Positions 42,391 to 59,642 of a stretch of DNA of 64,000 nt are shown one piece after another. Position numbers and translations under genes: made by a program. The DNA comes from Clostridiales bacterium. GTDB taxonomy: Bacteria > Bacillota > Clostridia > Christensenellales > Borkfalkiaceae. Location: contig SVHN01000001.1 of assembly GCA_015055805.1 (NCBI GenBank), forward strand, positions 186,001 to 250,000. Reading direction: 5' to 3'. The notes under the pieces are model-generated. The model did not search any database, was not told where the DNA came from, and was given only the letters and a program-made list of their open reading frames with translations. The number at the start of each line of letters is the position of its first letter. Position 1 is the first letter of the stretch.

Positions 42391-42409
42391 TAAAATCGTA
42401 TCTTTACTG

Positions 42410-42451
42410 ACAACAAAATAGAGCACCTTTTAGACAATTTCGTATATTTAC
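42410..42451 (+). promoter_or_regulatory. Conserved 42-bp upstream element, copy A (putative AraC operator)
   Basis: This 42-bp stretch is identical at 35 positions, without gaps, to 44719-44760. It contains ACAAAATAGAGCAC and, 21 bp further on, ACAATTTCGTATAT: two half-sites beginning ACAA two helical turns apart, the layout used by AraC-family activators. Its 3' end overlaps the -35 box of the following promoter. The likely binding protein is the AraC-family regulator encoded at 43,586-44,425. Confidence 0.72.
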
Positions 42452-42475
42452 AAATTCGGCGCGTGATATTATAAT
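42447..42475 (+). promoter_or_regulatory. Promoter of the 42,511 phosphoesterase gene
   Basis: TTTACA (42447-42452), 17-bp spacer, TATAAT (42470-42475), placed directly at the end of element A. Confidence 0.75.
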
Positions 42476-42510
42476 AATTCGGCAAATAAAAAATTAAAAG
42501 AGGAATAGTT

Positions 42511-43515
42511 GTGAAAACTGAGATCCCCGAATACTGGAAAAAACATATAGACTTAAAACTTGAAAAGATTAACGCAATCCGCGATATGGCGGAAGGAAAG
42601 ATTGCAGAGTTTATATTTTCAACCGATACCCACGTCGAAGTAGGGGAAAACAGAACGCCCGAACTTTGTAGATATATAATTGAAAAAACGGGTATTGATA
42701 AGGTTGTTTTCGGCGGCGACTTTATGGACGGCAGAAAGGATAAGAACGAGGCGCTAAAAAACTTAAAGCGTTGGCGTGATCTGTGGTGTGATTTACCTGT
42801 TTACGGGGTTAGGGGAAACCACGATACTAACACGGCTGGCGATTTTACCGAAGAGAACAGAATGACTGACGAAGAGTACCGCGAACAGATATATAAATAT
42901 TTTAAAAACGAGAATAACGGCAAGGGATTTTATTCTTACGTCGACGATGAAAAGAACAAAATAAGATACTTTTTATTGGATACAGGCGCGAAGTATTCTC
43001 AATTTTTTGGCGAAGGACACGAAAAAGATTTTATACTTTACGGCGCGCCTATCCCAGCGTATAAAGAACAGCTCGATTTTGTTTGGGAAAAGTCAAAAGA
43101 ACTCGGAAGGAACTGGCACGTCGTTGCAATTCAGCACATTATAATAGGCGGTCAAAACTGTAAAAATCCACGTCCTGTATATTTAATGCCGCAAGGCAAA
43201 GACCTACTGGTTACGCTGGATAAAATACAGGAAGACCCCGAAATGCCGAGAGTTTTAGTTGCAATGTGTGGACATAACCATATAGATAGAGAAATGCTTG
43301 GCATGGGTGGTTACCCCGTTTTATCCACTACTTGTGATAGTGGAACGCTGGCGGCAAAGCATAGCCAAGAAAATCCGTTAAGGGAAGTTGGAACAACCGA
43401 CGAGCAAGCTTTTGACGTTGTTCAATTAGATTTGACTAATTATAGATTTTATTCAACCAGAATAGGCTACGGCAAAGATAGAACGTACAAAATGTTTTTG
43501 TCGGTAACTCAATAA
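42511..43515 (+). CDS. Calcineurin-like metallophosphoesterase
   Basis: A 334-residue cytoplasmic phosphoesterase starting at GTG after AGAGGAA. Metal-binding motifs appear in order: FSTDTHVE, FGGDFMDG, GVRGNHDT, AIQHI and CGHNHID. No signal peptide. The substrate is unknown. Its promoter shares the 42-bp element with the sugar transporter operon, so it is probably coregulated with that locus and may process a phosphorylated or phosphodiester-linked sugar; this is inference from context. Confidence 0.86.
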   Translation: MKTEIPEYWKKHIDLKLEKINAIRDMAEGKIAEFIFSTDTHVEVGENRTPELCRYIIEKTGIDKVVFGGDFMDGRKDKNEALKNLKRWRDLWCDLPVYGVRGNHDTNTAGDFTEENRMTDEEYREQIYKYFKNENNGKGFYSYVDDEKNKIRYFLLDTGAKYSQFFGEGHEKDFILYGAPIPAYKEQLDFVWEKSKELGRNWHVVAIQHIIIGGQNCKNPRPVYLMPQGKDLLVTLDKIQEDPEMPRVLVAMCGHNHIDREMLGMGGYPVLSTTCDSGTLAAKHSQENPLREVGTTDEQAFDVVQLDLTNYRFYSTRIGYGKDRTYKMFLSVTQ

Positions 43516-43534
43516 TTTGCATAGGTGATTTAAC

Positions 43535-43574
43535 AAAAAAGGCTTTTAGAGAAAGTTCTCTAAAAGCCTTTTTT
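43535..43574. terminator. Bidirectional terminator between phosphoesterase and araC-type gene
   Basis: Long stem AAAAAAGGCTTTTAGAGAA paired with its complement at 43556-43574, with A and T runs at either end, ending both converging genes. Confidence 0.93.
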
Positions 43575-43585
43575 AACGTTTTACG

Positions 43586-44425
43586 TTAGTTTGAAGTGTT
43601 AAGTTTTCGGTATTGTGACGGGGTCAAAGAGTATTTTTTGTAGAAAAGTTTGTGGAAATAAGATAAACTGTCGTAACCCACTCTGTCACAGATTTCCCTT
43701 AAACTGAGCGACGTGCTGACAAGATAAAAGGACGCGTGCTTTAATTTTATCTCGTTTGCGTATTCGGTTATGGTCATGCCCGTTTCTTTCTTGAAGTAAT
43801 GGCAGATATACGACGGGGAATAGTGGAATTTATTTATTATACCTTGCAACGGGTTGGTTATGTTGTGATTCATGTTTAGAATCTCAATGATGCGTGAAAT
43901 AAGTTGCGGTTTGGCAGCGGACTGTTCGACGTTGTGGCATGCGGCTAAAAACTTGCTAAAAAACATATATAAAAAGATTTGCCCGCTTGAAATTTTAATA
44001 TTGATGTCGTTTTGAAGTTGTATATTACTTAGATTTTTTTCAATAAAGTCCACTTCGTCTTGTGAAAAGTTGACGATAGTGCGCTTGTAGTTTTCGTGAA
44101 TTTTTTTGTGTAGCCCAACCATGTTGTCGCATTGTTGCTTAAAGAAAGATTTGTCAACCAAAAAGTCACGCTTATAATAATAAGACATTTCGCCGTAAAA
44201 GGTATGCGAAACGCCGGGGATAACGATAATACAATCTCCGGCTTTTAGTTTTTCGTATTTTTTTCCGTCGTACGAGTGGAAGAATTCGCCTTTTATAACG
44301 TAAATAATCTCATAGAAATCATGAAGATGAGGCTGGCTTTTGCTGTAAGTATTGACAAGTGTGTAAAAGTGCGTGCCTTCGCTTATAAAAAAATTCTCTT
44401 CGTACTGTGTAGTGTTGTGTCCCAT
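43586..44425 (-). CDS. AraC-family transcriptional regulator
   Basis: About 279 residues: N-terminal cupin-like sensor domain (HLHDFYEIIYVIKGEFFHSY, then CIIVIPGVSHTF) and C-terminal double helix-turn-helix domain (QGIINKFHYSPSYICHYFKK, LREICDRVGYDSLSYFHKLF, LTPSQYRKL). It lies between two outward-facing promoters that carry the same 42-bp element, so it very probably controls both, responding to a sugar bound in the cupin domain. ATG 44425 coincides with the expected transcription start, so the message may be leaderless; an in-frame TTG at 44443 lies upstream of the promoter's start point. Confidence 0.9.
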   Translation of the reverse strand: MGHNTTQYEENFFISEGTHFYTLVNTYSKSQPHLHDFYEIIYVIKGEFFHSYDGKKYEKLKAGDCIIVIPGVSHTFYGEMSYYYKRDFLVDKSFFKQQCDNMVGLHKKIHENYKRTIVNFSQDEVDFIEKNLSNIQLQNDINIKISSGQIFLYMFFSKFLAACHNVEQSAAKPQLISRIIEILNMNHNITNPLQGIINKFHYSPSYICHYFKKETGMTITEYANEIKLKHASFYLVSTSLSLREICDRVGYDSLSYFHKLFYKKYSLTPSQYRKLNTSN

Positions 44426-44431
44426 AGTCGT

Positions 44432-44460
44432 ATGATAACACAATAAACAAGTTTAGTCAA
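44432..44460 (-). promoter_or_regulatory. Promoter of the araC-type gene
   Basis: Minus strand TTGACT (44460-44455), 17-bp spacer, TATCAT (44437-44432). The start point predicted from this promoter is at or next to the ATG at 44425. Confidence 0.75.
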
Positions 44461-44718
44461 GCATATCCGAATTTTTTAAGTTGAAGTTGAGCAAAATAAA
44501 ACAATATAGAGTTTAATTTGAGATATAAAATAACCGATAAAGGCTTATGTGAAAACAAACAAAACACCTGTGAAATTACAAAAAAATCAAATGATTTTAT
44601 AAAGTTAAAGTGGCTAAAATTGTATGGAAATACTTGTAATAAACGATTTTTATAAAAAATCAAAAAACATTAGGTAAAAGTTAAACGGTAAATTAAATGC
44701 TGCTATTGTTTTTATAAA
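44461..44718. other. AT-rich intergenic region without recognisable gene
   Basis: A very AT-rich 258-base stretch between the araC-type promoter and element B. Short ORFs lack ribosome binding sites. A weak GATTTTT/AAAAAATC hairpin lies near 44644-44660. I see no other feature. Confidence 0.5.
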
Positions 44719-44760
44719 ACAACAAAATTGAGCACATCTGGAACAATTGCGTATATTTAC
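44719..44760 (+). promoter_or_regulatory. Conserved 42-bp upstream element, copy B (putative AraC operator)
   Basis: Second copy of the element at 42410-42451 (35 of 42 identical, no gaps), with half-sites ACAAAATTGAGCAC and ACAATTGCGTATAT 21 bp apart. It abuts the -35 box of the sugar-locus promoter at exactly the same distance from the -10 box (18 bases) as copy A. Confidence 0.72.
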
Positions 44761-44784
44761 TAAATAAATCGGTAGATGTATAAT
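44756..44784 (+). promoter_or_regulatory. Promoter of the carbohydrate locus
   Basis: TTTACT (44756-44761), 17-bp spacer, TATAAT (44779-44784), giving a leader of about 120 nt before the solute-binding protein gene. The -35 box is poor, as expected for an activator-dependent promoter. Confidence 0.78.
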
Positions 44785-44811
44785 AAAAACGCATACTAGA
44801 GAAGTGTGTCG

Positions 44812-44854
44812 AGAAAGGGAGATCTCCCTTTCTGCAAACCGGTTTGCAGAAAGG
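44812..44854 (+). repeat. Two overlapping perfect palindromes in the operon leader
   Basis: A perfect 22-bp palindrome (44812-44833, AGAAAGGGAGA with its complement) overlaps a perfect 28-bp palindrome (44827-44854, CCTTTCTGCAAACC with its complement). The segment CCTTTCT is shared, so in RNA the middle strand can pair with either the upstream or the downstream strand but not both. It lies about 20-65 nt after the expected transcription start. No T run follows, so it is not an ordinary terminator; it could control mRNA stability or attenuation, or be a second operator in DNA. Confidence 0.8.
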
Positions 44855-44911: not shown

Positions 44912-46687
44912 ATGAAGAAAAGAATTTGTGTTTTATTGATGGCTGCGCTTTTAGCGGTCACGGGCGTGTTTACTTTTGGCGGTTGCGCGGCAAAAGAAGA
45001 GCTGACTGGCGACTCTAAAACTCTTAACGTAAAGATTAAGAGTTCGGGTTACGGCACGGATTTTATCCATGCGCTAAAAGAGCAGTTTGAAACTACGTTT
45101 GCTGAAGAAGGGTACAAGATCAACGTTCTTGCGCCGGATACGGCTCTTAGTGAAACCAAGATTTTGCAGACCGTTTATACCCAAAAGGGCGATAGCGGTG
45201 TAGATATCTTCTTTAGTTCGCTGAACGCTAGAAACGGCGTTGAAGGGAATTACGGTCAATGTATAGCAGACCTTACCGAAAACGTTTGGAAGAAAACACC
45301 TATTAAGTTTGACAAATCTACCGAAGACAAAACGGTTGAAGAAAAGGTTGCGGGCATGGATTTCCAAGGCGCAAGCGAATATAACGGAAAGTATTACGGC
45401 GTACCTTACGCTTTGGCGTTCGGTGGACTTGCTGTTAATAAAAAGGTTTTAGAGACGTTTAAAGATGCAGACGGTAAAACGCTTGAACTTCCCAAGACGT
45501 CCAACGAACTTTTCGAATGTGCAAGGGTAATTATGAGCAAGGCGACCAAGCCTACCGACGTAAAACCTTTTACCTATTCGACTAGTGGTAACAACTACGC
45601 GATATCTACCGTTAACCCCTGGCTTGCTCAGTACGAAGGTTACGATAGATTTAATCAGTTCTGGAGTTTTGAAGACGAAAACGGTCCTATGGTTGATGGG
45701 GAAGACGCTACTAGATGCGCAGAAGTCTTTGCTTTTGAAGGCGTAGAAAAAACTTTCGAAGCACTCTTTGAAATGTACGACTATAACGTAGCGGCTCAGG
45801 GCGCAAACAGCCAGACCTTTAATCAGGCGCAAGGTCAGCTTATGAACGGCGACGCCGTATTCTATTCGGTTGGTAGCTGGATGCTTAACGAAGAATACGT
45901 TCGTTGGAAAGACAACATTAACGACGTAGTATTTATTAGAACCCCCGTATTATCCGCGCTTGGGACAAAGATGTTCGGCGAAGGAACGGATTACGCTATG
46001 AGCGACGCCGATTGCGAAAAAGCACTTAGAATGATAATTGACGGTGCAGACGAAGATAAAGCGCCTGAAGATATTAAACCTACAATTGACGCAGCATTTG
46101 GTAAGGATTTCAAAACTGATGATATTTTAAGAGTATGCGAAGCGCGTGGCTACGCAAAGAACAGTTCGGGCAACGGCGCGTATCTCAATGAAAAATCTAA
46201 CAAAAAAGAACTTGCGTATACCTTCCTTCGCTTTATAGCAAGCGAAGATGCTGGTAAACTCATTGCGTCAAACACCAGAACCCCAAGTCCCTTTGCAAAG
46301 GAATGCTTGAAAGATAGCGAAATAGAATACTTGCGTAACCTTGACGAGATCGCAAACAGCAGATACTTTAAGATGATTACCGCAGATTCTTCGGGATACA
46401 GAAAAGAAATGGGCGTAAACTCAATGTTTATGTCTTACGCAGGCGAATATTTTGCAAACAAAGTTCGTGACTGGCGTGTAAGTATTTATAAAGACGACGT
46501 TTACACGTTTAAGGATACCGTATCGGTAGCAAACGGCGATACCAAGCATTCTGCTAAAATCGCAGATATAACCATTAACGGCAAATATTCAAGAGAACCG
46601 TATACTATTTGCGCAGAAGCATTTGCAAACGAAATATATAAAGTAGCAATAGAAAATCTAAAATCAGGTTTGTGGAAAGTTCAATAA
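44912..46687 (+). CDS. Sugar ABC transporter substrate-binding lipoprotein
   Basis: A 591-residue extracellular solute-binding protein, larger than the usual ~430-450. The signal peptide ends in lipobox FGGC (Cys25). The family 1-type binding fold is suggested by GASEYNGKYYGVPYALAFGG, LPKTSNELFECARVIM and FNQAQGQLMNGDAVFYSVGSW. First gene of the locus, preceded by AAAAGGAG. Two permeases follow, forming a CUT1-type importer for oligosaccharides. The size suggests a large ligand. No ATPase subunit is present, so a shared MsmX-like ATPase elsewhere must drive it. Confidence 0.9.
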   Translation: MKKRICVLLMAALLAVTGVFTFGGCAAKEELTGDSKTLNVKIKSSGYGTDFIHALKEQFETTFAEEGYKINVLAPDTALSETKILQTVYTQKGDSGVDIFFSSLNARNGVEGNYGQCIADLTENVWKKTPIKFDKSTEDKTVEEKVAGMDFQGASEYNGKYYGVPYALAFGGLAVNKKVLETFKDADGKTLELPKTSNELFECARVIMSKATKPTDVKPFTYSTSGNNYAISTVNPWLAQYEGYDRFNQFWSFEDENGPMVDGEDATRCAEVFAFEGVEKTFEALFEMYDYNVAAQGANSQTFNQAQGQLMNGDAVFYSVGSWMLNEEYVRWKDNINDVVFIRTPVLSALGTKMFGEGTDYAMSDADCEKALRMIIDGADEDKAPEDIKPTIDAAFGKDFKTDDILRVCEARGYAKNSSGNGAYLNEKSNKKELAYTFLRFIASEDAGKLIASNTRTPSPFAKECLKDSEIEYLRNLDEIANSRYFKMITADSSGYRKEMGVNSMFMSYAGEYFANKVRDWRVSIYKDDVYTFKDTVSVANGDTKHSAKIADITINGKYSREPYTICAEAFANEIYKVAIENLKSGLWKVQ

Positions 46688-46702
46688 CTTTGGAGAAGAA
46701 AG

Positions 46703-47677
46703 ATGGCTGATAATAAAAAGAAAGGGATATTAAGCAAGTATTCGGTTTGGGATAGGAAAAAATTCTCGTTCGTATACGTTATTCTAATCTATCCCGTAAT
46801 ACACGTTTTACTGTTCTATTTTTACGTTCATATCGATTCATTCCTTATGGCGTTTCAGGATACAAAGGGTGACTGGTCGTTCCAGTCGCTAGAAAGAGTG
46901 TTCAACGGATTTTTTAAGGGTGAAGACCCAGTTTCTGGTATTAATCTTCTAGAATACCTTTGGAAATCTCTTCTTATTTGGGTAAACGGCACAATCGTTA
47001 CAGACGTTATATCGCTCGTGATAGCCTTTATGTTAACCAAACATATGGTAGGTAGTAAAGCGTTCAGGGTTGTGTACAGTATACCGGGTCTTGTTGGCGG
47101 CGTTGTATTTTCAAGAATAATGCAGAATATTTACGCATATAACGGACCTATGATAGCACTTCTCGACTCAATGGGCGTAGAACTTAGCAACTTCGTTAGA
47201 AACGACGGATTACTTGGTGCGCAAGAAACGGCTTATGCAACCCTTTTAACTCAGTTCTTTATTTTCGGCATAACCGGCGGATCAATGATTATAGCAGGCG
47301 CGTATATGAAAGTGCCCGAAGAAATTTTTGAATCGGCAAGAATGGACGGTTGCGGCTTAGTAAGAGAGTGTGTCAGCATTGGTATTCCTTGTATTTGGCC
47401 AACTTTCTCTACCTTGTTGACTTTCTCGCTGTGCGGAATGTTCGTTGGCGGCGCAGACTTCTATCTGTATTCAAACGGTACGGGCGCAAACGGTCTAGTT
47501 TCAATAGGCTACTATATGCATAGACTTCAAGTTGCTATATCGCAAAACGTCGGTAACAACCAGTACTTGTTCGGATTTGCGTCTGCGTTCGGTATGGTTA
47601 TTACTATGTTTACTATACCTGTCGTTTTAATCGGTAAGAAAATTCTTTCCAAGATTAACGACGTGGTTGATTTTTAA
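46703..47677 (+). CDS. Sugar ABC transporter permease (MalF/UgpA type)
   Basis: A 324-residue membrane permease with six or seven helices. The EAA loop that contacts the ATPase is visible as ESARMDGCGLVRECVSIGIP. The N-terminal helix starts at about residue 22. It lies 15 bases after the solute-binding protein gene and 14 bases before the second permease, in the standard order of CUT1 sugar importers. Confidence 0.92.
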   Translation: MADNKKKGILSKYSVWDRKKFSFVYVILIYPVIHVLLFYFYVHIDSFLMAFQDTKGDWSFQSLERVFNGFFKGEDPVSGINLLEYLWKSLLIWVNGTIVTDVISLVIAFMLTKHMVGSKAFRVVYSIPGLVGGVVFSRIMQNIYAYNGPMIALLDSMGVELSNFVRNDGLLGAQETAYATLLTQFFIFGITGGSMIIAGAYMKVPEEIFESARMDGCGLVRECVSIGIPCIWPTFSTLLTFSLCGMFVGGADFYLYSNGTGANGLVSIGYYMHRLQVAISQNVGNNQYLFGFASAFGMVITMFTIPVVLIGKKILSKINDVVDF

Positions 47678-47691
47678 TAGGGGGGACGACT

Positions 47692-48588
47692 ATGAAAAAA
47701 ATGAAAGCTAAAACAAATCCCTTCGTTAAATTTCACAATTTGCATTTGGGAACGAAAATAATACTTATCGTATTCTTCTTGTACTTTATGTTGCAAGCGT
47801 TTATCCACCTTTATCCGTTCGTGTGGGTGTTCAATAACTCACTCAAAACGACTAAGGAATTTGCAACTAGCACTATGGCGATAACCCAAAGTTGGTCGTT
47901 TGTAAACTACTTGAAAGTTTTCAGCGACTTTAAGGGCAACGGCGTAGTTGGATACTGGAGTATGTTTATGAACTCGGTATGGCAGACTATGACTTATTTG
48001 CTCATTAACTTAGGTTCTAGTATGCTAGTTGCTTATGCAATAAGTAAGTTCAAATTCCCAGGAAGAAATCTTTTGTACGGATTTATGATCTTTACCCAAA
48101 CAATTCCGATTTTCGGTGCAGGCGCAGCAAGCTTTAAATTGCAGTACGCTTTGGGTTTTTATAACAACCCTTGGACTATATGGCTTGGCTGGGGTATGGG
48201 CTTTGACTATTCGGCGTTTATACTTTACGGAACGTTTATGTCCATAAGCAACTCTTACGCAGAATCCGCCTCGCTTGACGGTGCAAACGAATATCAAATA
48301 TTCGGCAAAGTAATACTTCCTCAGGTTGCGCCCGTTATGGCAGCATTAGTCGTTCAGAACTTTATCGGAAGATGGAACAACTACGGTACGTCGCAAGTAT
48401 ATCTTCCTGCGTATCCCAACCTTGCTTACGGTCTTTTCACTTTTGAAAAGCAAGCAATGTACACGGAAAACGCCGACGGCGTATATTTTGCCGCGCTATT
48501 AATCGCAGCAATACCAGGAATACTTATCTATTCTTTCTCACAAAACCTTATTATAAAGAACATCTCTGTTGGTGGTCTTAAAGGTTAA
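47692..48588 (+). CDS. Sugar ABC transporter permease (MalG/UgpE type)
   Basis: A 298-residue permease with six helices; the EAA loop reads ESASLDGANEYQIFGKVILP, and the final VGGLKG is the common C-terminus of MalG-type subunits. Together with the preceding permease it makes the transmembrane channel. A GGGGGGAC site precedes the ATG. Confidence 0.93.
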   Translation: MKKMKAKTNPFVKFHNLHLGTKIILIVFFLYFMLQAFIHLYPFVWVFNNSLKTTKEFATSTMAITQSWSFVNYLKVFSDFKGNGVVGYWSMFMNSVWQTMTYLLINLGSSMLVAYAISKFKFPGRNLLYGFMIFTQTIPIFGAGAASFKLQYALGFYNNPWTIWLGWGMGFDYSAFILYGTFMSISNSYAESASLDGANEYQIFGKVILPQVAPVMAALVVQNFIGRWNNYGTSQVYLPAYPNLAYGLFTFEKQAMYTENADGVYFAALLIAAIPGILIYSFSQNLIIKNISVGGLKG

Positions 48589-48603
48589 TATTCGGAGGGA
48601 AAA

Positions 48604-51600
48604 ATGAAGTTGAAAAGAATTTTAACCCTAACTTTAACCGCGGTTATGACTATGTGCGTACTTTTTTTAGTTGCGTGTGGCTCAACTAAAAACGTGCAAA
48701 TAAATTTCCGCGATACTAAAGCAGTATATAGGGTAGGCGAAACCATTGACCTAAAAGATATAGTTGAAACTGAAAAAGGTTTAACTTATTCTTTTTCGTA
48801 CTCAATCGACGGCGGTGAAACCGTCGACGTTGAGGCAAGAACGTTGTTTGCCGCAAAAGCAGGCGAATACACCATTAATTGCAAAGCTATAAATCAAAAG
48901 GGAAAAGAAGTCGGTAATAACAGCACGTCTATATGCGTTTACGACCAAGAACCGTTGATGTTTATGACCAACACAACGTATAGCTTTGTATACTTGGAAA
49001 AATATTACCTAGAAAAACTCATACCCCTTTACGATATGTTTTATCAATCGGAAGGTGATTACGAGTTTATTATAGATTATTGTTATCACTATAAAAATCC
49101 TTACGTAACCGAAGGCGTAAAAATCGAGTTCGGTGAAACGCCGTCAACTGGCGAATACGAAGGGTTTTACGACGGAAAAGATAGCGTCACCTTTATCAAG
49201 GAAGGAAAATACGAGTTCCACTTGATTATGAGAAACGGCGGCGGCGAAATTGACGATACGTTTATTGTGACCGTTCGTGAAAATTTCGAAGCGTTTGAAG
49301 ATTTATTAAACGATAAAGATTACCAAGGTCAATATACGCTTGATTACGACGTAGCAACGGGTATAGCAAGTTGGACGCCTTTTGACGGCGCGTCTTGGTA
49401 TAAGGTTAAAATCGACTACGAAACCGTTTATACGCAGAGTACTAGCCTTGATATAAGACCGTACTTTGTCCCGGCTGAAGAACGCGATAGCAAGGGCAAC
49501 GCAAAGATTCATTTCCAACTCTTTGATTTCACGGTTATACCGCTTGACGAAAATAAACAGCCTGTTCGTACGGGTATTCAAGAAGATAACGTTTTAGGAT
49601 ACAAATATCAACTTAAAGACTTCGTTGTTGCGCCCGAACAATGCGGAGCTGCCGTATTGTCAAAGGGTACTACCGTAACCGAAAAGGACGGAATTTATAC
49701 TGCAAGCCTATTAGGCGGAAAATCTAGGTCTAAGGGTTGGAGTACAGGCGTTCATATGCTTGACAACAACTACGTCGCTTGGCTTGGCGAATACGGAACG
49801 GGTACTTACGTTGACTTTACCTTTAAGGGCAACAACCTACCGCAAATGATGTTCTTTGCGGATAAAGTAAACGGCGACATGAGTATGGGTAACGAGAGTG
49901 ATCCTAACCAAGGTGTGTTTATCAATAACGGTATGTACTGCGCGATCGTAGATACGAGTTATCAGTTGTTTAGCGCGGACAGAATCACCGTTTGGGGGCC
50001 GAACAGATTCTACGGTTCTTCAAGTTCGACGGCAAAGACGTGGTCTGGTAGGGACGATAACGGCGTTAATCACAGAATAGCGCACGAACTTACCTATCCT
50101 GCATTTACTCAAAACTATCTTATGAGTAAAGAGGTTGAAAACACTAACTTCAAATATACCGTCGGTACTTACGAAAAGGGTGGATTATTGTGGATCAATA
50201 TGGCACTCTACAATCTTGATAACGGCAGTGAAATAAGCGTTGCGCATATAAGAACTACGCTTACGCCCGACAAGGTGAAAGCCGGCAATATCATAGCGTA
50301 CGCAAGCGTAAAAGTAGATGCGGAAGACTCGCAGTTTACCTTTACTAAACCTTACCAGAGTGAACCCGTTTACGGAAGTGTTTATCTCGGAACGGTCGAA
50401 AAGACAGGCGAAAATACCGGTAACGTTTTACTAAACGGTATAAGACCTGTTCACGCAGGCAGCGGCTCTGGCGTTGGTGCTAACTCGTCAATAGGCGTTC
50501 AAGACAGTTACTTACTCTTTAAGGGTGACTACGGCGTAGGCAATTACGTTGAGTTTACGTTTAAGGGCAACAATATGCCGTATCTTAATATGTTCTCTAA
50601 CGATATCGACGGTTATCTAGGTGATAACGGTTTAGGTGGTACAGGTTTAGTACTTATAAACGGTATAGTTGACAGAAACAACAATAAAGATGCAACAAAC
50701 GTTAACGTCGTTAAAGATGGCAACTATATAGATAGAGAAGTTTTATGCGATAAACTTACCGTTTGGGGACCCAACAGATACAGAGCGCAGCACGACGGTT
50801 CTAACGGTACTGGTGACGGCGGAAAACCGCTATTAACGTTCACTTACGAAGATTATCCGTTACTCACTCAAAAAGGTCTAAAAGAAGATACGTCGGGCAG
50901 AACTTATAAATATAGAGTTGGTACGTATTATGACGCAATCGGCAATCTATACCTTGATATTACCTTGTCTGATGCGTCGAACAACTCAGTAATTCACAGT
51001 ATTAAAGAGATAACAGGGCTTTCGTCGTTAGATATAGTTGAAGGCAATATCCTTGCCCTTGGTTGTATGAAAGGCGAAAACAACCCGACGGAATTTAGTT
51101 TCGTTGCGCCTAAACTCGATAAACCCGACACCGAAACCAACGTCGTTGCAAGAGACGCTATTCTTAATGCAGACAGTTCGGTAACGCTTAAAGGTGTTCG
51201 TCCTGTCAACTCTCAGGGAACGAAAGGCGTGGGCGCAGTTGGAAGTATCGGAAAAGAAGACAGCTATATCGCGTTTAAGGGCGATTACGGTGTAGGCAAC
51301 TACGTTGAATTTACGTTCAGCGGAAATAATATGCCGTATCTAAACCTGTTTGCAGATACCGTTGACGGTTGGCTCGGTATTACCGATTCTGAAATGGTCG
51401 GTGAAGGCGAAGAACAGCAAGAAGTCGGTATCCCAGGAAAGGGTATAGTTATCATAAACGGTATAGTTGACCAAGGCAACCAACGCAAAGACGATACCGT
51501 AAATAGGGAAATCCGCTGCGAAGAATATAACGTTTGGGGTCCCAACAGATACACGACTACTAGACAGGACGGAGCAAACATAGGCGAACATAAACCCCTA

Positions 51601-52665
51601 TTATCTCTGTCGTATAGCGAGTATCCGCTACTTACACAGAAAGGCTTAAAGGAAGATACGTCGGGTAAGACCTATAAGTACAAAGTCGGAACGTATTACG
51701 ACGTTATAGGTAATTTGATTTTAGATATTAAACTTTCCGATGCGTCGAACGACCAAGTAATATACGATATTCAAGAAGTACTAGAACTCGGCACGACAGA
51801 AATCGGTACGGGCAATATCGTAGCCCTTGCGCCTATGAAAGGCTTAAATCAAGACAGCACGTTTAAGTTTAGTGCGCCTGTAAAAGAAAAATCAGACGTA
51901 AAACCCGCAATCACAGCATCTGGCGCAGCAGTAAATGCTGATAACTCTGTAACCTTAACGGGTATCTCTGTTACAAATGGTCAAATTGGCACATGGAAAG
52001 CAGTTAAAAATAACTATATCGGTTTTGATAGTTTGTATGGTTTAGGCACTTATATTGACTTATATTACACTGGCGATAACGTACCTTACGTTACTTTCTT
52101 TGCAGACCAAATTGACGGTTGTATGAACGCTTATGATTCTACTGGCAGTAACAGTATTGACGGTTTTAATAGAGTAGGAATAATGATAGCATCAGGCGGT
52201 AGAACTTATACAACGCCAGGAACGAGTGGAGCTCAAGTTGCGGCAAACACTGAGAATAATTTATTTTTCTACGGTCCGTATAGATATCATTATACTAGCT
52301 CTTATTATACCAAATATGACGTTGCGAATTATACAAGTGTAGAAAATAGCAACTTTACAGAAATACTTCATAATAACGCTGTTGATAATAAGCAGTATAA
52401 GTTGACCTACGGTATGATTGACGTTGACGGAAGTATTTACGCGGATATAACTCTTTCGTATCTAAAAGAAAACGAAACCGAATATACGCCTATTTGTTCA
52501 TTAAAATTAGATACTGGAGTAACTGTAGAAGAAATGAAGACTGTACTCGGCATAACTAATGGCGAACTTAAAGGCAAAATTATTATCTACGCTGCTATTA
52601 AAGGCGCAGGCAACGATACGACTTTCTCGTTTAGTCAGCCGTATCAACCGCAACAAGGAGAATAA
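48604..52665 (+). CDS. Large surface lipoprotein with four tandem ~250-residue domains
   Basis: A 1353-residue lipoprotein: signal peptide with lipobox LVAC (Cys25), Ig-like regions (about 30-340), then four copies of an unrecognised domain with cores starting near residues 389, 635, 886 and 1136. Each copy has a SYxxFKGDYGVGxYVEFTF pattern, GNNMPYLNMF, an ING segment, VWGPNRY, a YPLLTQKGL or related stretch and a closing PxFSFxAP. I infer beta-sandwich (lectin-like) carbohydrate-binding modules; no catalytic motif is visible. Copy 4 is more divergent and nearly identical to the end of the protein at 54,535. Part of the transporter operon (16 bases after the permease). Confidence 0.83.
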   Translation: MKLKRILTLTLTAVMTMCVLFLVACGSTKNVQINFRDTKAVYRVGETIDLKDIVETEKGLTYSFSYSIDGGETVDVEARTLFAAKAGEYTINCKAINQKGKEVGNNSTSICVYDQEPLMFMTNTTYSFVYLEKYYLEKLIPLYDMFYQSEGDYEFIIDYCYHYKNPYVTEGVKIEFGETPSTGEYEGFYDGKDSVTFIKEGKYEFHLIMRNGGGEIDDTFIVTVRENFEAFEDLLNDKDYQGQYTLDYDVATGIASWTPFDGASWYKVKIDYETVYTQSTSLDIRPYFVPAEERDSKGNAKIHFQLFDFTVIPLDENKQPVRTGIQEDNVLGYKYQLKDFVVAPEQCGAAVLSKGTTVTEKDGIYTASLLGGKSRSKGWSTGVHMLDNNYVAWLGEYGTGTYVDFTFKGNNLPQMMFFADKVNGDMSMGNESDPNQGVFINNGMYCAIVDTSYQLFSADRITVWGPNRFYGSSSSTAKTWSGRDDNGVNHRIAHELTYPAFTQNYLMSKEVENTNFKYTVGTYEKGGLLWINMALYNLDNGSEISVAHIRTTLTPDKVKAGNIIAYASVKVDAEDSQFTFTKPYQSEPVYGSVYLGTVEKTGENTGNVLLNGIRPVHAGSGSGVGANSSIGVQDSYLLFKGDYGVGNYVEFTFKGNNMPYLNMFSNDIDGYLGDNGLGGTGLVLINGIVDRNNNKDATNVNVVKDGNYIDREVLCDKLTVWGPNRYRAQHDGSNGTGDGGKPLLTFTYEDYPLLTQKGLKEDTSGRTYKYRVGTYYDAIGNLYLDITLSDASNNSVIHSIKEITGLSSLDIVEGNILALGCMKGENNPTEFSFVAPKLDKPDTETNVVARDAILNADSSVTLKGVRPVNSQGTKGVGAVGSIGKEDSYIAFKGDYGVGNYVEFTFSGNNMPYLNLFADTVDGWLGITDSEMVGEGEEQQEVGIPGKGIVIINGIVDQGNQRKDDTVNREIRCEEYNVWGPNRYTTTRQDGANIGEHKPLLSLSYSEYPLLTQKGLKEDTSGKTYKYKVGTYYDVIGNLILDIKLSDASNDQVIYDIQEVLELGTTEIGTGNIVALAPMKGLNQDSTFKFSAPVKEKSDVKPAITASGAAVNADNSVTLTGISVTNGQIGTWKAVKNNYIGFDSLYGLGTYIDLYYTGDNVPYVTFFADQIDGCMNAYDSTGSNSIDGFNRVGIMIASGGRTYTTPGTSGAQVAANTENNLFFYGPYRYHYTSSYYTKYDVANYTSVENSNFTEILHNNAVDNKQYKLTYGMIDVDGSIYADITLSYLKENETEYTPICSLKLDTGVTVEEMKTVLGITNGELKGKIIIYAAIKGAGNDTTFSFSQPYQPQQGE
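51949..52644 (+). repeat. Direct DNA repeat, copy 1 (696 bp)
   Basis: Codes for copy 4 of the repeated domain. It matches 56113-56805 almost throughout, including long identical runs (for instance from the TACGACGTT-like stretch near 52,310 to 52,440), with one 3-base indel near 52,225. Both copies are in the same reading frame relative to their genes. Confidence 0.9.
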
Positions 52666-52667
52666 TT

Positions 52668-54242
52668 ATGAAGAAAATATTAATAAAAATCATAACGCTT
52701 ATGCTTTGCGCGGTTTTGTGCTTATCAACCCTTATCGGCTGCGCAGGTGGCCCGAAAGTAAAACTTCCCGATTATACTGGTGAAGAGTTTAAGTTTTTCG
52801 CTTATACTTCGCCAACCTCAGGCGAGTGGGTAAAGGACGGCGAAATCTATTATACTGAAGACTATCAAACGGTAGAAAGATATAAAGAGTACAAAGAATC
52901 AGGTCTAAACATCTTAATGCTTACGGGTGATTCAGGTTTTACTAACGAAGGTCCGTGGAAAGAAAGTACCGCTTATAAGTGTATGACAAACGCGTACGCG
53001 GCAGGTATTGACAAAATCATTTTGGACGATATTCGCCTAACAACTTTGGTGTATTCACAAAGTTTGGTGGGTGGCGAAGGTGCTATTTATAGCCCGGAAG
53101 ACGCTGACGGAGACGGCGTTTCAGACGCGTTATATAGAGACGTTAAATCGTACCTTGAAACATATTATAAGCAGCCCGGTTTTTATGGAATAAGACTTGG
53201 CGACGAGCCCGATTGTAAATATCAAGAATCGTTCGGACACGTTTATAGGGCGGTAACCGCGGCGTCAAAAAAACTGGGTATGGAAGACATTTACATCTTC
53301 TTAAATCTATTCCCGCACTTTGCCCCGGGCGAAAACACCTTTTCAGAAGAACCGACTAGCACTTTTGAACAGGCATATATGAGTTATTTGGAAGGATTTT
53401 TGGAAACGACCAGAGCACCTAGACTTTGCGTAGACATCTATTTCTTCAAGGGTTACGGCATGACTAGGGGGAATTACGCTTGCTTACAACTCTTTGAAAG
53501 GGCGTGCAAGAATTACGGAGCGCGTACGACTTTCGCTCTTCAATCATACGAAGGGTGGTCGGGCAACACCGTAAACTACGACCTTATGGATAGAGCAATG
53601 ATGAACTTTGAAATGAACAGCTGTATCGGCATGGGAATGACTGAGTTTGCCTATTACACCTATATGCCAGGTAAATCCTATTCGACTACGGGCACAAAGG
53701 CTTTGGAGCGCGGCTCTTTCTTAACTAGAAACGGCGAAAAGACTAATATCTATTATTACGCTCAGGAAACTATGGCGATAGCGCAGAAACTTGCGCCCAT
53801 CATTACTAACTATAAATTCCAAGGCTCTAAACTCTATACTTGCGACGATCCTTGGACACAGGATAACCCGATTGTTGCAAACTTTGATTACACTAACTAT
53901 TTCCGCAGTTCGGTTGACGAAAAAACGAATACCGCAATCGAGTTTGACAACAGCTACAAATTTAAAAAAATCAATAAGGTCAATATAGATAACGACATAG
54001 CATTTGTTACCGAACTATACGATCAGACTAACGACCTATATATGTATATGGCTCAAAACGTAATTGATCCTAGAAGCGGTGCGCTTGGTAGAACGGATAT
54101 GAACGTTTCAATTGACTTTGGCGATTACGAATGGGTTGCTCAAATAGAAGACGGTGACGTAACTTACGTAAAGCTTGAAGACGGCATATATAACAAAGCA
54201 CTCTCGGCTGGTTATGCGGTATATTTAGTACCGTTAGTATAA
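52668..54242 (+). CDS. Glycosidase-like surface lipoprotein (DEP-motif family)
   Basis: A 524-residue lipoprotein (lipobox LIGC, Cys25) with what looks like a TIM-barrel glycosidase fold. Candidate catalytic residues are Glu180 in GIRLGDEPD and Asp256 in PRLCVDIYFF, the first resembling the acid/base Glu of clan GH-A enzymes. An inserted loop DADGDGVSD (145-153) has the pattern of a calcium-binding loop. It is a clear paralogue of the intracellular protein at 56,922 (shared DEP, RLCVD and NGEK...YY blocks). I cannot assign a GH family. It starts 2 bases after the previous gene, so it is cotranscribed. Confidence 0.78.
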   Translation: MKKILIKIITLMLCAVLCLSTLIGCAGGPKVKLPDYTGEEFKFFAYTSPTSGEWVKDGEIYYTEDYQTVERYKEYKESGLNILMLTGDSGFTNEGPWKESTAYKCMTNAYAAGIDKIILDDIRLTTLVYSQSLVGGEGAIYSPEDADGDGVSDALYRDVKSYLETYYKQPGFYGIRLGDEPDCKYQESFGHVYRAVTAASKKLGMEDIYIFLNLFPHFAPGENTFSEEPTSTFEQAYMSYLEGFLETTRAPRLCVDIYFFKGYGMTRGNYACLQLFERACKNYGARTTFALQSYEGWSGNTVNYDLMDRAMMNFEMNSCIGMGMTEFAYYTYMPGKSYSTTGTKALERGSFLTRNGEKTNIYYYAQETMAIAQKLAPIITNYKFQGSKLYTCDDPWTQDNPIVANFDYTNYFRSSVDEKTNTAIEFDNSYKFKKINKVNIDNDIAFVTELYDQTNDLYMYMAQNVIDPRSGALGRTDMNVSIDFGDYEWVAQIEDGDVTYVKLEDGIYNKALSAGYAVYLVPLV

Positions 54243-54260
54243 TTAATTTGTTGACACATA

Positions 54261-54293
54261 GGGCGGACGGCGTTCGCCCCATTGTCGTACAAT
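54261..54293 (+). other. Two tandem hairpins between the lipoprotein and peptide genes
   Basis: Hairpin 1: GGGCGGAC (54261-54268) pairs with GTTCGCCC (54272-54279), loop GGC. Hairpin 2: ATTGT-CGT-ACAAT (54281-54293). No T run follows, so they may be processing or stabilising elements in the operon mRNA rather than terminators. Confidence 0.6.
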
Positions 54294-54306
54294 AATGGCA
54301 AAAACG

Positions 54307-54320
54307 TGAAAACGTTAAAA
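54307..54320 (+). promoter_or_regulatory. Possible catabolite-responsive (cre-like) element
   Basis: TGAAAACGTTAAAA fits the CcpA cre consensus TGWAANCGNTNWCA at all but one defined position. A TACAAT at 54321-54326 could be a -10 box, but no -35 box is spaced correctly. Chance match is possible. Confidence 0.3.
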
Positions 54321-54371
54321 TACAATTCATACGGACAGAAAACTATAAAATCTCAATAAAGGAGAAAAGAG

Positions 54372-54521
54372 ATGAAAAAGTTTTATGAAACAATTTTAGC
54401 AGAACTCACAGAGTTCAACGCGGACGACGTTATAATGGCAAGTCCGGCAACAGGCGATGGGGATAACTATCTTGGCGATTCAGGCGACCTAAAAGGCATC
54501 GGCAGTATAGGCGATCTATAA
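54372..54521 (+). CDS. 49-residue small protein of unknown function
   Basis: Reads MKKFYETILAELTEFNADDV, then IMASPATGDGDNYLGDSGDL, then KGIGSIGDL. Acidic and glycine-rich at the C-terminus, no signal peptide or transmembrane helix. AAAGGAG lies 7 bases before the ATG, and the next gene starts 13 bases after its stop, so translation is credible. Small proteins with an N-terminal amphipathic part followed by a DVIxAS stretch occur near secreted proteins in gut Firmicutes, but I know no function. It could be a peptide signal, a chaperone for the next protein, or a cell-surface tag. Confidence 0.72.
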   Translation: MKKFYETILAELTEFNADDVIMASPATGDGDNYLGDSGDLKGIGSIGDL

Positions 54522-54534
54522 GGGGGAAAAGAAA

Positions 54535-56823
54535 ATGACTAAAAGAATTAGAAATTTATTCGTAGCAATACTTTCTTGCTTGTTAGTAGCCGTAGCGTGT
54601 GTTGGTATGGTAAGTTTAGTAAAAGCAGACGTTACCGTTATCACAATGACAGGAACAGCCGAAGCAAACGTTAAGACGGCGGAAAAGTCAGGATTGAGAT
54701 TTTCAGCAGTTATAAATAAGAGTGAGTATCAAACGCTCACCCAAGACAAAGATGCAAAAGTAGGTATGATAATAGTACCTACCGACCACTTGAACGCTGC
54801 AATATCGCAAGGCTTGGATTTTACAATAGAGGAACTAAGCACTTACGCACCGTTCGAAGGCTATGCGTTTTACGACTATGCAGAAACCGTAAAGGATAAC
54901 GGAGACGAGTATCAATTTTGGATGACCGTTCCAAATATATCGGGGGCAAACTATAACAGAGATTTTTCAGCAAGAGCGTTTATAGAGATAAACGAAGGAA
55001 ATAGCGTGTCGCGCGTATATGCAGACTATGACGCAGAAAACGCAAGGAATGTATACGAAGTAGCGTATAGCGCGTATACCGATGGAACGATAGAAGATCA
55101 AACTGGAAAAGAGATTGCAAAGACATTTATTGATGGTGTAGCAGTATTAGAATACGACAGTAATAGTGGCAAAGTAGTAATCGCAAACAACCAAGGTGAT
55201 TATACTTCACCTTATACCATAGAAAAAGACGGCTTAGGCAATTATATTATAAACGGCAGGGGCGTTAATCCGTCTGCTATGACCTATGGTTTAGAACGCA
55301 AAACATCGTTCACTTTCACCGACACCACGAATAGTGCTACCGTCAATACGATTCTTACGCAAGAAGCAAAGTTTGGCGAAAACAACTCAGTATCCTTACA
55401 GAGCGCACAAGTTAATGGTAACAGTACAAAAGCAAATTTACAGGCTGTATCAGATTATATCGGATACGTTGCATTTAATGGTAGTTACGATGTTGGAACT
55501 TACGTTACCACAACCTTTAAGGGTAACAACATGCCGCAAGTAATGTTCTTTTCTAACGTTATTGACGGCGACTTAACAGGTGTTGCCTATGATGATGAGA
55601 CAAGACAAGGTGTTGTCGCAATGAACGGCGTTGTTGGTTATGGTGGTGCAAACCATGCGACAAATCTATATAAGGTTATAGGTCCGAATAGAATGTCTGT
55701 TAGCAACTATACATCAGAATATTATATTAACCTAAATATTTTAAACGGGGATAGTTATCCACTTCTCACGCAAGATGGGTTAAATGTAGATACTTCCGAC
55801 GTTACCTATAGATACACTGTAGGAACGTATCTTAACGATTCAAATGCAATTATTTGGGAAGTTTTCTTATATAATAACGATACTGATGCACTAATTTATC
55901 ACGAAGAACTTGCTCTAAGGAATACTGCTGCGGGATATAATCCTTTGATGAGTGACGATATCACGGCAAGTAATATTGTAATATATTCTTGCCTAAAAGG
56001 GACTAAAGATTTATACGATACTGATTTTACTTATTCAATGCCGTTTAGTAGAGATATATTGCTTGAAGACATTAAACATAGTGGTGCAACGATAAATGAT
56101 CGTTGTGACACGGTAACCTTAACGGGTATCTCTGTTACAAATGGTCAAATTGGTACGTGGAAAGCAGTTAAAAATAACTATATTGGTTTTGATAGCTTGT
56201 ATGGTTTAGGTACTTATATTGATTTCTATTATACTGGTGATAACGTACCTTACGTTACTTTCTTTGCGGACCAAATTGACGGTTGTATGAATGCATATGA
56301 TTCTACTGGCAGTAACAGTATTGATGGTTTTAATAGAGCCGGAATAATGATAGCATCTGGTGGTAGAACGTATACTACTCCGGGATCTGGATCTCAAGCT
56401 ACCGCAAACACTGAGAATAATTTATACTTCTACGGTCCGTATAGATATCATTATACTAGCTCTTATTATACCAAATATGACGTTGCGAATTATACAAGTG
56501 TAGAAAATAGCAACTTTACAGAAATACTTCATAATAACGCTGTTGATAATAAGCAGTATAAGTTGACCTACGGTATGATTGACGTTGACGGAAGTATTTA
56601 TGCAGATATCGCTCTTTCGTATCTAAAAGAAAACGAAACCGAATATACGCCTATTTGTTCGTTGAAATTAGATACTGGTGTAACTGTAGAAGAGATGAAA
56701 ACCGCTCTTGATATAACTGAAGGTGATCTTGTAGGTAAGATCATTGTGTATGCAGCGGTTAAAGGCGCAGGCAACGATACCACTTTCAGATTTAGTCAAC
56801 CTTACACCAAGACCAACGGTTAA
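54535..56823 (+). CDS. Secreted protein with two copies of the repeated domain
   Basis: A 762-residue protein with a signal peptide (hydrophobic stretch near 8-30, no lipobox cysteine at the cleavage site). An N-terminal domain of about 40-215 contains KSGLRFSAVINKSEY and GMIIVPTDHL, a pattern I recognise only as recurrent in secreted proteins of gut Clostridia. Two copies of the large lipoprotein's repeat follow, with cores near residues 306 and 547. The second is almost identical to copy 4 of the 1353-aa protein. No catalytic motif; binding of a glycan is inferred. Confidence 0.8.
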   Translation: MTKRIRNLFVAILSCLLVAVACVGMVSLVKADVTVITMTGTAEANVKTAEKSGLRFSAVINKSEYQTLTQDKDAKVGMIIVPTDHLNAAISQGLDFTIEELSTYAPFEGYAFYDYAETVKDNGDEYQFWMTVPNISGANYNRDFSARAFIEINEGNSVSRVYADYDAENARNVYEVAYSAYTDGTIEDQTGKEIAKTFIDGVAVLEYDSNSGKVVIANNQGDYTSPYTIEKDGLGNYIINGRGVNPSAMTYGLERKTSFTFTDTTNSATVNTILTQEAKFGENNSVSLQSAQVNGNSTKANLQAVSDYIGYVAFNGSYDVGTYVTTTFKGNNMPQVMFFSNVIDGDLTGVAYDDETRQGVVAMNGVVGYGGANHATNLYKVIGPNRMSVSNYTSEYYINLNILNGDSYPLLTQDGLNVDTSDVTYRYTVGTYLNDSNAIIWEVFLYNNDTDALIYHEELALRNTAAGYNPLMSDDITASNIVIYSCLKGTKDLYDTDFTYSMPFSRDILLEDIKHSGATINDRCDTVTLTGISVTNGQIGTWKAVKNNYIGFDSLYGLGTYIDFYYTGDNVPYVTFFADQIDGCMNAYDSTGSNSIDGFNRAGIMIASGGRTYTTPGSGSQATANTENNLYFYGPYRYHYTSSYYTKYDVANYTSVENSNFTEILHNNAVDNKQYKLTYGMIDVDGSIYADIALSYLKENETEYTPICSLKLDTGVTVEEMKTALDITEGDLVGKIIVYAAVKGAGNDTTFRFSQPYTKTNG
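56113..56805 (+). repeat. Direct DNA repeat, copy 2 (693 bp)
   Basis: Second copy of the repeat at 51949-52644, about 4.16 kb downstream, same strand and same relative reading frame. Recent duplication or gene conversion is indicated by the high DNA identity compared with the other, clearly diverged copies of this domain. Confidence 0.9.
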
Positions 56824-56836
56824 ATAAATACAAAAA

Positions 56837-56878
56837 ACAACAGCCTACCTAGACAGAAACTGTCTAGGTAGGGGTTGT
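56837..56878 (+). other. Strong hairpin after the secreted repeat protein
   Basis: CCTACCTAGACAG (56844-56856), loop AAA, CTGTCTAGGTAGG (56860-56872), with further pairing of ACAAC (56837-56841) and GTTGT (56874-56878). Only a weak T-rich tail (TTGTGTTAT) follows. It may reduce, rather than stop, transcription into the last three genes. Confidence 0.75.
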
Positions 56879-56921
56879 GTTATCAAAATTCAGAGTTTTT
56901 AAGGACGAAAAGGCATATATT

Positions 56922-58310
56922 ATGGACAAAAAAATAAAAGATAAGTTTCGCGTTTACGCGTATACCGCACCAGGGTCGGTTGGAATATGTCGCCACGACG
57001 ATTCGGTAATGAAAGATTTCGTTGATGCAGGGTTTAACTGCTATCTTTTAACGGGGCTTAATCAATTTAACGGCGGCGATTATCAAAATTCTGATGCTAA
57101 AAAGACTATCGAACTTGCAAAAAAACACGGCATAAACGAATTTATTATGCGTGACGGTAGGCTTATCGACTTAATTTTCTTAAAAGACAAACTTTTAGGC
57201 GAAAAGGACTGTAAATTTAAGACGGAAGACCAACTCGACGAATATGTTCTAACCTGTCTAAACGACTATTTATCGGACGTAATCGGCGTAGATTTAAGGG
57301 ACGAGCCAAAGTATTATGAAACGGATAGTTTTTGCACCGTTTACCGTTCGATAAGAAGGGTTACGGATAAACTCGGCATAGAAGATTTTTATATTCACAT
57401 AAATCTTCTGCCTATAAACTACGAGCGACTAATAACAGTAAATCCCGATAAATCGAGGACGTATATAAACTCAAACGTCTTTGTTCCCGACAAGGAATAT
57501 GAAAGCATAAACCAAGCGTTTAGAACGTATATTACAAGATATTTAGACGGTTGCAAGGCGAATAGACTTTGCGTGGACGATTATCCTTTCCGTAGGGGAA
57601 GATTTTTATCTACGTATTTTACTTCTCTGCAAATTTTAGCCGAAGAGTGTAGAAAGCGCGACGTAGAATTTTCCTTTATTCTACAAGCGTACGACACTAA
57701 AAACTGCATATTTAGAGAAGTCGATAAGTTCAATATGTACCTACAAATGAACGCCGTCGTTGGGTTTGGCGCAAAAGATATCGGATTTTATACCTATATG
57801 GCACACGGTGGGTCTGACGATAAGTACGTTGCGAAGTCGTCTTTCGTGCGTGCTAACGGCGAAAAAAATCCCACTTATTATAACGGTAAAAAGGTAATAA
57901 AAGAATTTCAAGACTTTGCAAAGGTAATTCAGCCTTTTAATTATAAGGGCGCAAAGTTCTTCTATAACACCGACTTTTACTACTTATCAATAACAGAAAA
58001 CTTCGATAATGGTTACGAGTTTAAATACTTAAAAAATCTTTCGGTAGATAACGACCTTATTTTAACAACCGAGATGGCAAAATATAATTCGCAGTATTTA
58101 TACATGATATCTAACGCAGCGGATACCGTATATAATCTTGGTGAAGTAAATTTCACGGCAGAGTTTGACGGAGAATTTACACACGTTGAAGAATATTATT
58201 TCGGAACGCAAGAAGAGTGCGGATATAAGGGCAAGAAAGAACTTAAAGACGGCAAATACACAAAGACACTCGCATCGGGAGCGGCAGTATATTTAATCCC
58301 GACAAAGTAG
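56922..58310 (+). CDS. Cytoplasmic glycosidase-like protein (DEP-motif family)
   Basis: A 462-residue paralogue of the lipoprotein at 52,668, without signal peptide. Candidate catalytic residues are Glu128 in GVDLRDEPKY and Asp219 in NRLCVDDYPF. The final ~100 residues form a beta-type domain in both paralogues (ending AVYLIPTK here and AVYLVPLV there). The start is ATG 56922, after AAAGG; the frame is open upstream to 56877 but that part overlaps the hairpin. An outer and an inner version of one enzyme would act on the polymer outside and on imported oligomers inside. No known GH family can be assigned. Confidence 0.77.
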   Translation: MDKKIKDKFRVYAYTAPGSVGICRHDDSVMKDFVDAGFNCYLLTGLNQFNGGDYQNSDAKKTIELAKKHGINEFIMRDGRLIDLIFLKDKLLGEKDCKFKTEDQLDEYVLTCLNDYLSDVIGVDLRDEPKYYETDSFCTVYRSIRRVTDKLGIEDFYIHINLLPINYERLITVNPDKSRTYINSNVFVPDKEYESINQAFRTYITRYLDGCKANRLCVDDYPFRRGRFLSTYFTSLQILAEECRKRDVEFSFILQAYDTKNCIFREVDKFNMYLQMNAVVGFGAKDIGFYTYMAHGGSDDKYVAKSSFVRANGEKNPTYYNGKKVIKEFQDFAKVIQPFNYKGAKFFYNTDFYYLSITENFDNGYEFKYLKNLSVDNDLILTTEMAKYNSQYLYMISNAADTVYNLGEVNFTAEFDGEFTHVEEYYFGTQEECGYKGKKELKDGKYTKTLASGAAVYLIPTK

Positions 58311-58319
58311 GAGATCATC

Positions 58320-59630: not shown

Positions 59631-59642
59631 AAGGAAACGAAC

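What the first reader, a model, noticed from the sequence alone, without database searches (positions are those of the whole stretch)
42410..44784. Twin 42-bp promoter elements flanking an AraC-type regulator
42410-42451 and 44719-44760 agree at 35 of 42 positions with no gap, although the coding sequences downstream are unrelated. Each ends in the -35 box of its promoter and stands exactly 18 bases before a TATAAT. Within each, two ACAA-starting half-sites lie 21 bp apart, as expected for an AraC-family activator. The AraC-family gene between them is the obvious binding protein. The phosphoesterase and the ten-gene locus would then form one regulon, and the motif can be used to find further members in the genome.
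Basis: partly seen in the sequence, partly recalled or inferred. Interest (0 to 1): 0.72.

Follow-up and report, generated by a model that had tools for sequence, protein, structure and literature searches.

The report
Paired AraC-type activator promoter sites
Two nearly identical 42-base elements, the only two in this genome at the similarity searched, stand before a phosphoesterase-like gene and a nine-gene transport locus on either side of a gene for an AraC-type regulator, which likely binds both and would switch them on together.

Summary
42410-42451 and 44719-44760 agree at 35 of 42 positions. Each runs into a -35 box followed by 17 bp and TATAAT. Five of the 7 differences fall in the 8-bp gap between the half-sites. 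At up to 3 mismatches these are the only two copies in the 1.73-Mb genome.

In another species of the genus the nearest regulator homologue with DNA (41% identical) is also divergent from a related transport protein. The DNA between them holds a like element (29 of 42; best of 1000 shuffles 26) with TTGACC-17-TATAAT. More widely, promoters divergent from AraC-type genes favour direct repeats 21 bp apart ending at the -35 box.

Against it: inside these elements a 19-bp register scores as well or better, regulator and site similarity hardly correlate, no further member was found, and the phosphoesterase has no relative at E 1e-40 in the other 43 genus genomes.

Side finding: 12 of 28 readable AraC-type genes here look leaderless, this one included, against 0 of 51 other window genes.

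The parts
42410..42451 (+). Element copy 1, before the phosphoesterase gene; half-sites 42413-42425 and 42434-42446, 8-bp gap between them
   Evidence: 35 of 42 identical to copy 2; one of two copies in the genome at up to 3 mismatches
42447..42475 (+). Promoter of the phosphoesterase gene: TTTACA, 17 bp, TATAAT
   Evidence: 11 of 12 consensus positions; consensus match only
42511..43515 (+). Calcineurin-like metallophosphoesterase, 334 aa, predicted regulon member
   Evidence: PF00149 at 1.8e-12; no relative at E 1e-40 in the other 43 genus genomes
43586..44425 (-). AraC-type regulator, cupin plus HTH, 279 aa from the ATG at 44425; predicted binding protein
   Evidence: PF12833, PF00165, PF02311, PF07883; predicted orthologues P0001 to P0004 begin at this aligned column
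44432..44460 (-). Promoter of the regulator gene: TTGACT, 17 bp, TATCAT, ending 6 nt before the ATG (predicted leaderless mRNA)
44719..44760 (+). Element copy 2, before the transport locus; half-sites 44722-44734 and 44743-44755
   Evidence: like element at the same place in G020
44756..44784 (+). Promoter of the transport locus: TTTACT, 17 bp, TATAAT
   Evidence: 10 of 12 consensus positions; consensus match only
44912..61502 (+). Nine co-directional genes: solute-binding protein, one clear and one likely permease, four proteins without a Pfam match, GFO/IDH/MocA oxidoreductase, alpha-L-rhamnosidase-like protein; predicted regulon member, a single transcript not shown

Best explanation
The two elements are likely the operators of one small regulon, in which the AraC-type regulator encoded between them would bind each as two neighbouring half-sites ending at the -35 box and activate transcription. 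Shown: the twin elements, their promoter-like sequences, their rarity in genome and genus, a like element at the homologous place in another species, and a family-wide excess of 21-bp direct repeats ending at the -35 box. Inferred: that this regulator binds them, that it activates, that its cupin domain senses a sugar or oligosaccharide brought in by the transporter, and that the phosphoesterase serves the same pathway.
For: 35 of 42 match. Only two copies in the genome within 3 mismatches, 0 in the reversed control. Five of 7 differences lie in the 8-bp gap between half-sites, p 0.0012. In G020 the nearest regulator homologue with DNA (41%) is divergent from a transport-protein homologue (44%), and the DNA between has the element at 29 of 42, with TTGACC-17-TATAAT; 0 of 1000 shuffles reach 29. 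At promoters divergent from AraC-type genes the 21-bp spacing scores 7.31 of 13 against 5.34 for the 21 other spacings (sd 0.23, 32 regions); without the four loci that suggested the rule, 7.25 against 5.31 (28 regions); in a further set 6.96 against 5.35 (23 regions, one of them already in the first set). The score peaks with half-site 2 ending at the -35 box.
Against: Within the elements the best 21-bp repeat is 7, 6 and (G020) 8 of 13, while a 19-bp repeat gives 7, 9 and 10; 19 bp is also the runner-up in the further set (6.43). DNA-binding-domain similarity and site similarity correlate weakly (r 0.10, p 0.053, 32 loci). A site assigned to a 32% identical regulator (L006) matches the phosphoesterase element at 18 of 26 half-site positions, slightly better than the G020 site (17). 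Three other regulator and transport-protein pairs lack the element (best 21-23 of 42). The -35 boxes match consensus at 5 and 4 of 6, so the promoters might work unaided. No third member was found, and the phosphoesterase part could not be checked in another species.
Confidence: 0.75

Rival explanations
1. The elements are real operators, but for another of the genome's AraC-type proteins, and the gene between them is a bystander.
For: The genome has 29 AraC-type genes. Regulator and site similarity hardly correlate, and another regulator's assigned site matches the phosphoesterase element at 18 of 26.
Against: The regulator homologue and the element occur together again in G020. A regulator divergent from its target is the common layout here: 36 of 45 AraC-type loci examined have a divergent gene start 80 to 500 nt away.
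Confidence: 0.12
2. The regulator binds the elements but represses both promoters.
For: The elements touch the -35 boxes, which match consensus at 5 and 4 of 6, with perfect -10 boxes and 17-bp spacers, so the promoters could work unaided.
Against: The site lies upstream of the core promoter. In Caldicellulosiruptor bescii all four single-component AraC-family regulators have tandem sites upstream of the promoter and are read as activators (PMC8579813, passages).
Confidence: 0.1
3. The likeness is a leftover of a recent copying of a promoter fragment and has no present role at the phosphoesterase gene.
For: The phosphoesterase has no relative at E 1e-40 in 43 other genus genomes, so it may be a late arrival that took over a promoter.
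Against: Differences sit in the gap between half-sites, not evenly (p 0.0012), and the flanks are unrelated.
Confidence: 0.03

Closest known systems
AraC/XylS-type activators with two tandem half-sites (XylS, MekR, AraC, MtlR)
   Same: The site formulas quoted for XylS and MekR add up to 21 bases per half-site period (PMC4514859, passages; the addition is mine). The MtlR site lies directly upstream of the -35 sequence (same passages).
   Different: Other bases in the half-sites; the regulator reaches no curated cut-off of a named NCBIfam AraC-type model among the 25 shown; two separate promoters flank the regulator gene.
Local AraC-family sugar regulons of Caldicellulosiruptor bescii
   Same: AraC-family regulator next to transporter genes, tandem-repeat sites upstream of the promoter, inferred activation (PMC8579813, passages).
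   Different: Another lineage; here LacI genes were not found at all, whereas that paper lists LacI, DeoR and other families for sugar use.
Leaderless bacterial genes (side finding)
   Same: -10 box a few bases before the ATG and no Shine-Dalgarno sequence; transcription genes (COG K) are more often leaderless (PMC3160421, passages).
   Different: In Firmicutes that survey places leaderless genes mainly in Lactobacillales and Mycoplasma; here they gather in one regulator family. 5' ends are not mapped.

Membership tests
AraC/XylS family (the protein) | C-terminal pair of helix-turn-helix motifs | tested here: met
   PF12833 at 6.9e-21 over residues 204-280, PF00165 at 1.5e-17
AraC/XylS family (the protein) | N-terminal ligand-binding cupin domain (sugar-regulator branch) | tested here: met
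   PF02311 at 7.5e-09 and PF07883 at 1e-08
AraC/XylS-type tandem operator | Two direct-repeat half-sites 21 bp apart | tested here: inconclusive
   7 and 6 of 13 at 21 bp, 7 and 9 at 19 bp in the two copies; 21 bp is best family-wide
AraC/XylS-type tandem operator | Downstream half-site next to the -35 box | tested here: met
   Half-site 2 ends where the -35 hexamer begins in both copies and in G020
AraC/XylS-type tandem operator | The regulator binds it and activates | not testable with these tools
   No binding or expression data
One regulon of the two promoters | Same element before both targets, rare elsewhere | tested here: met
One regulon of the two promoters | Element kept before orthologues of both targets | tested here: inconclusive
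   Kept before the transport protein in G020; no phosphoesterase relative in 43 other genus genomes
Leaderless gene (the regulator) | Promoter directly before the start codon, no Shine-Dalgarno sequence | tested here: met
   TTGACT-17-TATCAT ends 6 nt before ATG 44425
Leaderless gene (the regulator) | mRNA 5' end at the start codon | not testable with these tools
   No transcript data

The most novel reading that the evidence does not exclude
The locus is one instance of a shared regulatory format. AraC-rich species of this uncultured genus (29 such genes here, 27 in G029) run much of their glycan use through local AraC-type activators, each divergent from its target, whose promoter carries a 13-8-13 operator ending at the -35 box. 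Many of these regulators are made from leaderless mRNAs, and LacI-type regulators are absent here. This regulator has captured a second promoter, that of the phosphoesterase, by a second copy of its operator.
Probability: 0.45. Interest if true: 0.55.

Novelty: new member of a known kind. Interest (0 to 1): 0.4.

Why it matters
It names a two-promoter regulon with a defined operator in an uncultured lineage, ready for one binding test. The same layout at dozens of AraC-type loci, with different letters but a preferred spacing and place, is raw material for learning which residues of this large family choose which bases. If the leaderless starts are real, their concentration in one regulator family makes it testable why some genes do without a leader.

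Tried and rejected
Chance likeness: rejected. Palindromic operator of LacI or TetR type: the best inverted match of 13-mers within each element is 8 of 13, in two of three cases a 13-mer against itself; the genome search found 0 LacI and 2 TetR genes. Known RNA element in 42300-45000: 5 matches at E up to 5, none near its gathering score. Long duplication: the flanks are unrelated.

Co-variation of regulator and site: r 0.10, p 0.053 over 32 loci, inconclusive; the sites were picked by an automatic rule and some are surely wrong. Further regulon members: none in the genome or in 44 genus genomes. The patterns were written after seeing the G020 element, so they show that other copies are absent, not independent conservation. 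The element beside another regulator (L037) has a single copy, the only such comparison I made.

Close orthologues of the regulator (P0002 to P0004, 74-81%) and of the phosphoesterase (P0010 to P0012, 67-69%) could not be read as DNA. P0004 and P0011 are both listed with a longest contig of 45290 bases, perhaps the same contig; I could not confirm it. The genome-contig scan gave two distant relatives that I did not use further. The phosphoesterase matches no solved structure at E 0.01.

Rows dropped: of 29 AraC-type genes L063 could not be read. Of 45 loci, 36 had a divergent start 80-500 nt away and 32 of these a candidate promoter. One search found 51 genes in five genomes and returned 30 loci; 26 had a divergent start and 23 a candidate promoter; L097 among them is the locus L012 of the first set. 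For L004 and L038 I named the promoter by hand, which feeds only.

Full report
WHAT IS THERE. The two 42-bp stretches agree at 35 of 42 positions. Each runs into a promoter-like sequence with a 17-bp spacer and a perfect TATAAT; the -35 boxes are TTTACA and TTTACT. Likeness stops at the element and the -10 region. The seven differences are uneven: five lie in the eight bases between the half-sites (p 0.0012), as one would expect of a protein that holds two separate half-sites. Within 3 mismatches of a pattern with 29 fixed bases, the genome (1,725,581 bases in 20 contigs, 95.7% complete) holds these two copies and no other, and the reversed control gives none.

GENES. The phosphoesterase (42511-43515) carries PF00149. 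The regulator has cupin and AraC-type HTH domains. The nine genes 44912-61502 include a solute-binding protein, one clear permease (PF00528) and one likely (weak NCBIfam match only), four proteins without a Pfam match, a GFO/IDH/MocA oxidoreductase and an alpha-L-rhamnosidase-like protein. The next gene (61630, DUF1295) has a promoter-like sequence of its own. Uptake and breakdown of a glycan, perhaps one with rhamnose, is inferred from these families.

CONSERVATION. Of 151 genomes searched, the own one included, 13 hold a match to the regulator at E 1e-30. The best outside the own genome (G020) is 41% identical and divergent from a 44% identical transport protein. The DNA between them matches copy 1 at 29 of 42 (copy 2 at 25), followed by TTGACC-17-TATAAT. 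In 1000 dinucleotide shuffles of that region the best match to either copy was 26. A pattern fitted to all three gives these three places only in 44 genus genomes at up to 3 mismatches, with no control hit; being fitted, it shows rarity and no more. Three other regulator and transport-protein pairs (L005, L007, L018; regulators 32-34% identical) lack the element, best 21 to 23 of 42.

THE FAMILY PATTERN. The own genome has 29 AraC-type genes, 2 TetR and no LacI. For regions between AraC-type genes and divergent genes I asked which direct-repeat spacing, ending at a -35 box, stands out among 12 to 33 bp. It is 21 bp: mean 7.31 of 13 against 5.34 for the others (sd 0.23, highest other 5.81; 32 regions). 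The own-genome part (19 regions, 7.26) and the part from relatives (13 regions, 7.38) both show it. Without the four loci that suggested the rule it is 7.25 against 5.31 in 28 regions, and 21 bp is top or tied in 12 of 28 (2.45 expected). A further set from five genomes of four genera gives 6.96 against 5.35 in 23 regions, top or tied in 7 (1.5 expected); 19 bp is second at 6.43, and one of these loci was in the first set. The score peaks when half-site 2 ends at the -35 box. Known sites have this form: the XylS and MekR formulas quoted in PMC4514859 add up to 21 bases per period (passages; the addition is mine).

WEAK POINTS. In the two window elements and the G020 element the best 21-bp repeat is 7, 6 and 8 of 13, while a 19-bp repeat gives 7, 9 and 10. 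So the 21-bp reading rests on the family. Regulators with more similar DNA-binding domains have only slightly more similar sites (r 0.10, p 0.053), and the site assigned to another regulator (L006) matches the phosphoesterase element at 18 of 26, the G020 site at 17. The phosphoesterase has no relative at E 1e-40 in the 43 other genus genomes nor in 395 others drawn from the order, so its membership rests on the 35 of 42 match. Relatives at 67-69% exist in the protein database; one is listed with the same longest-contig length as a 74% regulator orthologue.

MECHANISM. Most likely the regulator, on sensing a sugar through its cupin domain, binds each element as two neighbouring half-sites and helps RNA polymerase at an imperfect -35 box. 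Element, promoter-like sequence, rarity, conservation in G020 and the family spacing are shown. Binding, activation, ligand and shared pathway are inferred.

LEADERLESS REGULATOR (side finding). The regulator's own promoter-like sequence ends six bases before ATG 44425, with no Shine-Dalgarno sequence; predicted orthologues P0001 to P0004 begin at that aligned column. The same holds for 12 of 28 readable AraC-type genes of the genome, each time at the first in-frame ATG, 11 times at six bases and once at seven. Among the other window genes it is 0 of 51, and 40 of all 52 have a Shine-Dalgarno-like sequence at a possible start (Fisher p 6e-7). That control is imperfect: many window genes lie inside operons and need no promoter of their own. 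The rate at random positions upstream of AraC-type genes is 1.1%. Elsewhere it is 11 of 17 regulator homologues, one (L009) probably spurious, and 7 of 30 AraC-type genes of five further genomes, 1 of 10 in G029. A survey reports more leaderless genes in transcription (COG K) and, in Firmicutes, mainly in Lactobacillales and Mycoplasma (PMC3160421, passages). C. difficile mapping gave 15 potentially leaderless genes (PMC7438776, passage), but 212 leaderless transcripts are reported for C. acetobutylicum (PMC4533764, passages), so such mRNAs are not foreign to clostridia. The AraC-type activator VirF of Shigella has a leaderless mRNA for a shorter form (PMC5101355, abstract opening in the search listing). 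The listings showed no report of an AraC-wide habit in Clostridia; those lists are capped.

VERDICT.

Noticed in passing
44425-44460 (minus strand); AraC-type loci L004 to L022, L036 to L064, L070 to L099: Many AraC-type regulator genes carry a promoter-like sequence ending 6-7 nt before the ATG and no Shine-Dalgarno sequence, as in leaderless mRNAs: 12 of 28 in this genome, 11 of 17 homologues, 7 of 30 in five further genomes.
   Followed up: yes
44811-44855: The leader of the transport locus holds two perfect palindromes that share a strand, so that two hairpins exclude each other; no T-run follows. The leader folds better than shuffles (z -3.6). The G020 leader has two neighbouring hairpins with other letters (z -2.5).
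   Followed up: partly
48604-52665 and 54535-56823; 52668-54242 and 56877-58310: Two pairs of related genes inside the locus: the 1353-aa and 762-aa proteins are 57% identical over 537 residues, nearly identical at their C-terminal ends; the 524-aa and 477-aa proteins are 28% identical. None has a Pfam match at E 0.001.
   Followed up: partly
whole genome G000: 29 AraC-type (HTH_18) genes, 2 TetR and no LacI gene in 1.73 Mb; G029 of the same genus has 27 AraC-type genes, G043 only 5.
   Followed up: partly
56844-56872: A 13-bp perfect stem with a 3-base loop stands between two genes of the locus; the terminator scan lists it on both strands, with a weak T-run.
   Followed up: no
regulator residues 39, 41, 45 and 80: H39, H41, E45 and H80 are invariant in the 7 aligned regulator proteins; from memory this resembles the metal-binding residues of cupins.
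   Followed up: no
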